40,223 nt of DNA from Acidobacteriota bacterium (GTDB lineage: Bacteria; Acidobacteriota; Polarisedimenticolia; Gp22-AA2), in the NCBI GenBank assembly GCA_018606725.1, contig JAGYID010000013.1, forward strand, positions 1 through 40,223, written 5' to 3'. This document shows, piece by piece, positions 28,260 to 40,223 of this stretch. The notes beneath the pieces were generated by a model that had not been told where the DNA came from, ran no database searches, and was given only the letters and a program-made list of their open reading frames with translations. How positions within the stretch are numbered: position 1 is the stretch's first letter; every line of letters starts with the position of its first letter. Both the position numbers and the translations under genes were made by a program.

Positions 28260-28327
28260 GTGCATCCGCCCGGGTCCCGCACGGCCCCCCGCGTTCACAC
28301 CGCCGTGCGGAGAAACCCTGCGCGCGG

Positions 28328-28774
28328 GGGCGGCCCGGGGTGCGCCTCGCGGGGCACGCGGTCGCGCCGCCCGGATGCGGCACAGTACGCCGCACAGGCG
28401 GCGCGCCGCTCTCTCTCCCGCGCCCGGCCGCCGAACAGCGGCGGCCTACGGGCGCGGTCCGCGATCGCCCCGCCACCCCCACTCCGGGCCGCCCGTCACC
28501 CCCGGGGATTTCTCCCCACCACCGCCATCGCGGGTGTTCGGGCTGGTCCGAGGTATGAAAGGGAGTTCTTTCCCACCTGGCAACCTCGGTGGCGCGATCG
28601 ACGTGGAGTGACTCCGCGGTGACGGAGCGGCGGCGTGCGCATCGCGGGGCCGTCGCGCAGCGCGGCGGAGCGAGCGCTTTGTAGCCGAGCCCGCCGTGCG
28701 GAGCGCGAGCGAGCACCGCCCGTCGGCGCTCTTCAGCCGATCCGGGCGGCGCGCAGCGTGCCCCGCGAGGCGCA
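28328..28774. repeat. Composite GC-rich structured repeat, copy 1
   Basis: An intergenic element made of modules shared with 39892-40223. Block A (28417-28504) matches 39933-40020 at 85 of 88 positions. Block B (28618-28761) matches 40080-40223 at 138 of 144 without gaps. The 113-base spacer between them (28505-28617) is unrelated to the 59-base spacer of copy 2. Block A holds a 16-pair hairpin (28418-28433 with 28439-28446 and 28450-28457). The element is flanked by a long inverted repeat: 28341-28376 and 28740-28774 are reverse complements except for a short mismatch/indel zone. It sits between two divergently oriented genes. No transposase or credible ORF is present; the predicted reading frames follow from GC bias. 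Confidence 0.75.
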
Positions 28775-28828
28775 GGCCGCCGCCCCTCCACGATCGATCT
28801 CTGGGCGCGCTCGTTGGCGGCGCGCCGG

Positions 28829-28857
28829 TTGACGGTTGGTGGAGGGTGCAGTAGATT
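28829..28857 (+). promoter_or_regulatory. Promoter of the GT39-type gene, probably leaderless
   Basis: TTGACG (28829-28834), a 17-base spacer, then TAGATT (28852-28857). The -10 ends nine bases before the ATG at 28867, so transcription should begin at or within a few bases of the start codon. No Shine-Dalgarno sequence sits at a normal distance from that ATG, which fits a leaderless mRNA. Confidence 0.5.
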
Positions 28858-39891: not shown

Positions 39892-40223
39892 GGGCGGCCC
39901 GGAGTGGGTTTGGCGGGGACGCGGTCGTTGCGCCCGCGCCCGGCCGCCGAAGAGCGGCGGCTTGCGGGCGCGGTCCGCGATCGCCCCGCCACCCCCACTC
40001 CGGGCCGCCCGTCACCCCCGAGAACTGCCAGTACGTCCTCCTCTCGAGCACAGCGGCGACGGGTGCCAAAGGACTCGATGGTCACGGGGCGGCGGCGTGC
40101 GCCTCGCGGGGCCGTCGCGAAGCGCGGCGGAGCGAGCGCTTTGTAGCCGAGCCCGCCGTGCGGAGCGCGAGCGAGCACCGCCCGTCGGCGTTCTCCAGCC
40201 GATCCGGGCGGCGCGCAGCGTGC
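39892..40223. repeat. Composite GC-rich structured repeat, copy 2 (cut by the window edge)
   Basis: Second copy, in the same orientation as 28328-28774. Block A is 39933-40020 and block B 40080-40223, where the window ends before the flank can be seen. The left module (39892-39918) is the reverse complement of 39984-40010 at 25 of 27 positions, so the first half can fold into a long outer stem around the inner hairpin (39934-39949 with 39955-39962 and 39966-39973). Relative to copy 1, the inner stem has C to T at 39962, which turns a G-C pair into G-U in RNA and keeps the fold. The spacer (40021-40079) is unrelated to that of copy 1. Confidence 0.72.

What the first reader, a model, noticed from the sequence alone, without database searches (positions are those of the whole stretch)
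28328..28774. Dispersed composite repeat: two conserved structured blocks flanking an unrelated spacer
Block A (88 bases, 85 identical) and block B (144 bases, 138 identical) recur in the same order and orientation at 39933-40223. The DNA between the blocks is 113 bases in one copy and 59 in the other, with no visible similarity. Conserved borders around variable cargo are not expected from a simple decaying repeat. It lacks ORFs, lies in intergenic DNA upstream of genes, and may be a non-autonomous mobile element, a structured RNA family or a recombination cassette. I do not recognise it.
Basis: seen in the sequence. Interest (0 to 1): 0.7.

Follow-up and report, generated by a model that had tools for sequence, protein, structure and literature searches.

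The report
Paired Y-shaped dispersed palindromic DNA element
The two similar stretches are copies of a roughly 450-base non-coding DNA element, present about 50 times in this groundwater acidobacterium, made of two inverted Y-shaped hairpins whose pairing is preserved although their letters change, and no known enzyme that could move it was found in its genome.

Summary
Blocks A and B are fragments of two inverted Y-shaped (three-way-junction) hairpin units of about 160 nt, alpha and beta. Full copies are always alpha(+)–spacer–beta(–) or the mirror order. Own genome: about 50 places, 59 model hits, 30 contig ends inside a unit. Relatives: 34 hits in G002, 6–7 in G007, 1 in G003; the phylum scan (347 genomes) found none outside the family. 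Covariation is very strong (78 two-sided compensated cells versus 20.6 shuffled, 0/500). Flanks are complementary copy by copy further out (0/20,000 permutations), so parts of the spacer belong to hairpin stems. The second copy's short spacer belongs to a common family; the first copy's long spacer resembles no other. An occupied/empty orthologous site and lineage-specific expansion support past mobility, followed by piecewise decay. IS200/IS605 (Y1) transposases were not detected in the eight family genomes; Rfam, attC and terminator tests are negative. Best reading: a non-autonomous, REPIN/BIME-like mobile repeat of unusual size and shape, mobiliser unknown, kept palindromic by hairpin-templated repair or selection on the folded form. 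New variant of a known kind.

The parts
28329..28493 (+). Unit alpha of copy 1: Y-shaped hairpin (P1 stem, arms P2 and P3). P1 is a hybrid here: its 5' arm is of the GTGCGCCTCGCGGGG type, its 3' arm of the CCCCGCCACCCCCACTCC type
   Evidence: DNA fold -74.6 kcal/mol, z -6.2
28417..28504 (+).
28494..28626 (.). Spacer of copy 1 (133 nt, long class): alpha tag CGTCACC at left, beta tag (GGTGACG = CGTCACC inverted) at right; interior unlike the other spacers compared
28627..28783 (-). Unit beta of copy 1 (inverted Y-shaped hairpin with long P3 arm)
   Evidence: DNA fold -73.2 kcal/mol, z -4.9
28269..28328 (.). Outer left flank; in this copy clearly complementary to the inner flank of alpha (score 26, rank 1 of 28)
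28784..28843 (.). Outer right flank; its complementarity to the inner flank of beta is weak in this copy (score 22, rank 8 of 28). It overlaps the promoter-like sequence of the next gene
28829..28857 (+). Promoter-like TTGACG-17-TAGATT of the downstream gene, left intact beside the element
39893..40009 (+). Unit alpha of copy 2, deletion derivative: most of P2 lost between short GCGCCCG repeats
   Evidence: read directly by comparing with the intact alpha units; fold
40010..40082 (.). Spacer of copy 2 (73 nt, short conserved class)
40083..40223 (-). Unit beta of copy 2, truncated by the contig end

Best explanation
It is a non-autonomous dispersed repeat of one family of Acidobacteriota: a heterodimer of two large Y-shaped hairpin units (alpha and beta) in inverted orientation with tagged ends facing inward, about 450-500 bp in all. 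Shown: copy number, dimer architecture, conserved three-way-junction fold, compensatory change, genome-specific expansion, and one orthologous site that is occupied in two genomes and empty in five. Inferred: copies spread by insertion into intergenic DNA, probably as a folded single strand or cruciform recognised by a host or transiently present enzyme (a REPIN-like mode). After insertion the hairpin arms are kept complementary by intrastrand template switching (palindrome correction) and/or selection on the folded DNA, and copies decay by deletion of an arm or a whole unit.
For: 59 model hits in own genome, 34 in G002, 6 in G007, 1 in G003 (broader model); none in the other genomes of the phylum scan. 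All complete pairs are +/- and join one alpha and one beta: 14 of 14 in G000 and 4 of 4 in G002, all spacers printed (the script typed several partners only as '?', and these were assigned by eye). Covariation 78 two-sided cells vs 20.6 shuffled and 4-16 slid; wider set 137 vs 35.5. P1 stems: 843 Watson-Crick of 886 aligned positions. Own-flank complementarity beyond the unit 20.4 vs 15.0, 0/20,000. Nearest neighbour always in the same genome except for the lone G003 copy. Occupied/empty site between GDPD and sat: G003 keeps beta plus a 49-nt alpha remnant (score 70 vs shuffled max 39), G007 keeps alpha, and five orthologues have only 8-108 nt between GDPD and the -35 box. Deletion derivatives: 39893-40009, C81, C87. 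Template switching that homogenises inverted-repeat arms is a documented process (abstracts of PMC8604942, PMC7202029).
Against: No transposase is associated: Y1_Tnp is not detected over cut-off in the eight family genomes, and Y2_Tnp not in G000 or G002. No full-length autonomous copy and no defined target-site duplication were found. One site (upstream of coxIII) is shared by two genera, so some copies are old. The empty sites could in principle reflect repeated precise loss. The genome is a fragmented draft (235 contigs).
Confidence: 0.68

Rival explanations
1. A dispersed structured RNA or 5'-leader/insulator element: the units are transcribed and act as RNA hairpins (mRNA stabiliser, antiterminator, protein-binding RNA).
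For: Strong covariation. Next genes more often point away from the element: 76 of 112 flanks in the three genomes vs 0.58-0.59 in G000 intergenic regions of at least 80 nt. Many copies lie just upstream of promoter-like sequences. Mismatches in P1 are biased to A-C over G-T on the unit strand (14 vs 4 distinct), which would be G-U on the opposite strand.
Against: One-sided (wobble) changes are almost absent: 4 cells vs 78 two-sided. Two inverted units per element mean no single sense strand. No Rfam match at E<=1 and no intrinsic terminator. In the cases read, promoters lie outside the element, so it need not be transcribed. The orientation bias is small.
Confidence: 0.13
2. A REP/BIME/REPIN family in the strict sense, mobilised by a RAYT (Y1 HUH transposase) that has since been lost or is missing from the drafts.
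For: Inverted dimers with an unpaired inward tag (CGT-A motif at 28 of 29 inner edges in G000), intergenic, genome-specific populations; CGTC-tagged REPs with mostly HH dimers and no dedicated transposase are described (PMC3733652).
Against: Units are about 160 nt Y-shaped hairpins, not 20-40 nt simple hairpins. No Y1_Tnp over cut-off in eight family genomes, four of them at least 90% complete with low contamination. The tag differs in G002.
Confidence: 0.1
3. Chromosome-architecture or protein-binding sites (nucleoid-protein or topoisomerase targets), selected at many places rather than mobile.
For: Conserved fold and about 50 places; one site shared between genera upstream of coxIII.
Against: Absent or nearly absent from other genomes of the genus of G007 (G004-G006: 0 hits; G003: 1 hit). 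Copies cluster by genome. Almost no shared flanking genes between G000 and G002/G007 elements.
Confidence: 0.06

Closest known systems
REPINs / BIMEs (REP dimers), incl. CGTC-tagged REPs (PMC3733652, PMC3116915)
   Same: Intergenic, inverted pair of palindromes with an inward unpaired tag and a short spacer, some spacers conserved and others variable; genome-specific populations; CGTC REPs also lack a dedicated transposase
   Different: Units about 160 nt with a three-way junction rather than 20-40 nt hairpins; alpha/beta heterodimer in every complete pair; further copy-specific stem; no Y1 transposase detected; convergent intergenic sites are not favoured
TIRtrons / TIRYT terminal repeats of Acidobacteria (PMC3733652)
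   Same: Long, partly self-complementary repeats in the same phylum, in single and paired form
   Different: TIRYT is a Y1 enzyme, not detected here; the phylum scan found no homologue of this unit outside the family; TIR sequences themselves could not be compared
Bacterial MITEs (ERIC, NEMIS, Bcr1, Nezha type)
   Same: Non-coding, intergenic, strong secondary structure
   Different: Larger than the 70-300 bp given for MITEs in PMC3733652; ends are Y-shaped hairpins rather than simple 15-30 bp TIRs; no target-site duplication or parent IS identified
Integron attC sites (from own knowledge)
   Same: Imperfect palindromes active as folded single strands; an integron integrase gene is in the genome
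   Different: No GTTRRRY/RYYYAAC boxes, units in inverted pairs; the integrase also occurs in relatives without the element

Membership tests
REP/BIME/REPIN | Short (20-40 nt) simple palindrome as the repeat unit | tested here: not met
   Intact units about 156-169 nt in G000 with a three-way junction
REP/BIME/REPIN | Inverted pairs with an unpaired terminal tag | tested here: met
   All pairs +/-; CGT-A tag at 28 of 29 inner edges in G000; tag not conserved in G002
REP/BIME/REPIN | Associated RAYT (Y1_Tnp) gene | tested here: not met
   PF01797: none over cut-off in eight genomes; control genomes rang
REP/BIME/REPIN | Preference for 3' / convergent intergenic sites | tested here: not met
   2 convergent of 27 classified elements in three genomes; null 0.14-0.24; slight excess at 5' sides
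MITE | Terminal inverted repeats | tested here: inconclusive
   The element ends in inverted units but borders are blurred by the outer stems
MITE | Target-site duplication | tested here: inconclusive
   Empty sites found at GDPD/sat but too diverged to define the junction
MITE | Parent insertion sequence with the same ends | tested here: inconclusive
   No pair of units around a gene among the loci read; draft genome
Known RNA family (Rfam 15) | Match to a covariance model | tested here: not met
   No hit at gathering or at E<=1
Integron attC | R-box pair GTTRRRY / RYYYAAC | tested here: not met
   0 of 44 units
TIRtron TIR | Flanks a TIRYT (Y1) gene | tested here: not met
   No Y1 gene detected in the genomes
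Mobile element (general) | Occupied versus empty orthologous site | tested here: met
   G003/G007 occupied; G000, G001, G004, G005, G006 empty
Mobile element (general) | Demonstrated transposition | not testable with these tools
   Needs strains or an assay

The most novel reading that the evidence does not exclude
A new class of mobile repeat: an alpha/beta pair of Y-shaped DNA hairpins that spreads as folded single-stranded (or cruciform) DNA using an enzyme outside the IS200/IS605 family, with its long stems constantly rewritten but kept complementary by hairpin-templated repair.
Probability: 0.3. Interest if true: 0.75.

Novelty: new variant of a known kind. Interest (0 to 1): 0.5.

Why it matters
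If the reading is right, palindromic dispersed repeats need not be small REPs tied to RAYT transposases: a much larger, branched, two-part form exists and expanded in some members of one acidobacterial family without a detectable Y1 enzyme. Its many copies, with arms that change together, give a natural record for separating hairpin-templated mutation from selection on structure. It also accounts for about 6% of the contig ends of this draft genome (30 of 470).

Tried and rejected
Cargo cassette (short spacers are alignable and spacer ends pair with flanks). Rfam RNA. RAYT-driven REP. IS91-like Y2 enzyme as general driver (not found in G000 or G002). Integron attC; integrase presence does not track the element. 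Intrinsic terminators. Viral carriage: three pattern hits in viral contigs gave no match to the unit profile, and the surrounding sequence is not a unit. I first read the G003/G007 copies as one orthologous unit with a replaced stem; the flanks show they are beta and alpha remnants of one dimer, so that claim was dropped. The A-C versus G-T asymmetry is too weak to assign a strand. Very weak hits in G001 and G008 were not counted.

Full report
OBSERVATION. The window is contig 189 of a 3.74-Mb draft genome in 235 contigs. Its nearest named relatives with the element are groundwater Acidobacteria MAGs (JACQNT01 and JACOUZ01). Searching the genome with A and B gives 55 and 67 matches, which merge into about 50 elements; 30 of 470 contig ends lie inside a unit, so the true number is uncertain.

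ANATOMY. Block A is the 3' part of a palindromic unit (alpha). Nearly all intact units fold alike: an outer stem P1 of about 25-28 bp, then a junction carrying arms P2 and P3 (34 of 36 units gave exactly two arms). Block B is a second, inverted unit (beta). Every complete pair is + then -. All 14 complete pairs in the own genome and all 4 in G002 join one alpha and one beta, in either order (where the script printed '?' the type was read by eye from the printed tag). The inner edge carries a CGT-A tag in 28 of 29 own-genome units; the tag differs in G002.

STRUCTURE IS CONSERVED, SEQUENCE IS NOT. On 28 units from three genomes, 17 of 34 pairs show two-sided change (78 cells against 20.6 in shuffles, 0/500; slid controls 4-16). 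A wider set of 42 gives 137 against 35.5 (that alignment was fitted to the model, so it leans towards the structure). Alignment A1 was made by plain MAFFT. One-sided wobble changes number 4 cells in A1. Related copies share changes, so these counts are not independent events, but the slid control keeps relatedness.

FURTHER STEMS. Each outer flank is complementary to its own inner flank at 20-60 nt from P1 more than to those of other units of its class (20.4 vs 15.0 for 20-55 nt, 0/20,000), while the first 20 nt are not. This holds for the set; individual copies vary. The spacer's ends are therefore parts of hairpin stems. Nine of the 14 spacers compared are 71-77 nt and five are 119-144 nt; copy 2 of the window is of the short class, copy 1 of the long class with an interior unlike the rest.

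DECAY. Copy 2 of the window has lost most of P2 between GCGCCCG repeats (read by comparing). C87 keeps only beta's P1 stem, and C81 has alpha and spacer without beta. In G002:C104 a unit is split by another inverted-repeat insert.

DISTRIBUTION. 59 hits in G000, 34 in G002, 6 in G007, 1 in G003, none in G001 and G004-G006 nor in the rest of the class. The phylum scan of 347 genomes found only G000, G003 and G007 (strict filters, and G002 does not appear in its table). A broader model gave the same picture in 20 genomes. Units are nearest to units of the same genome.

MOBILITY. Between GDPD and sat, G003 has beta plus a 49-nt alpha remnant and G007 has alpha. G000, G001, G004, G005 and G006 have 8-108 nt between the GDPD end and the conserved -35 box. 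With GDPD identities to G003 of 84% (G007) against 64-73% for the others, one gain in the G003/G007 ancestor is the simplest reading. The coxIII upstream site carries units in G000 and G007, so some insertions are old or recurrent.

POSITION. Elements lie in intergenic DNA; 68% of next genes in the three genomes point away against 58% in comparable G000 intergenic regions (simple GC-based gene calls). This is a mild bias and does not by itself indicate function.

MECHANISM. Spread as a folded single strand or cruciform is inferred from the shape and from the REPIN precedent (PMC3116915; own knowledge of the model). No enzyme is identified: Y1_Tnp is not detected over cut-off in eight genomes, and Y2_Tnp is found only in G003 and G007. 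Palindrome correction by template switching is known in bacteria and yeast (abstracts of PMC7202029 and PMC8604942) and fits the near-absence of one-sided changes, but selection on folding would give a similar picture.

LIMITS. Draft genomes; no close strains; no expression data; element borders and target-site duplications undefined; unit typing partly by eye; literature search restricted to open papers.

Noticed in passing
L281 about 2245-2577 (G000:C37) and orthologues L275-L280: Upstream of ATP sulfurylase (sat; Pfam) seven family genomes share a promoter, a short ORF with a Cys run (G000...GCCCPICP*), and (seen by eye) a GGGAGATAGGACAA-type segment and a CCCTTTCCGG...CCGGAAAGGGTTTTT terminator: looks like a cysteine-responsive attenuator; no Rfam hit.
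   Followed up: partly
L131 about 2465-2885 (G002:C104): An unrelated inverted-repeat insert of roughly 400 bp (ends GGAGCCTGCCCGGGAAAT / ATTTCCCGGACAGGCTCC) splits a unit.
   Followed up: no
L240 (G000:C40:1536-2477): Integron integrase, 473 bits to TIGR02249, over cut-off in five of eight family genomes.
   Followed up: no
window 28329-28376 and 28735-28792: In copy 1 the 5' arm of alpha P1 also pairs with beta's arm, so the whole element can fold as one long hairpin.
   Followed up: partly
L252 about 1330-1480 (G001:C133): A Y-shaped palindrome with partial sequence similarity to the G003 unit, below model thresholds; possibly a diverged relative.
   Followed up: partly
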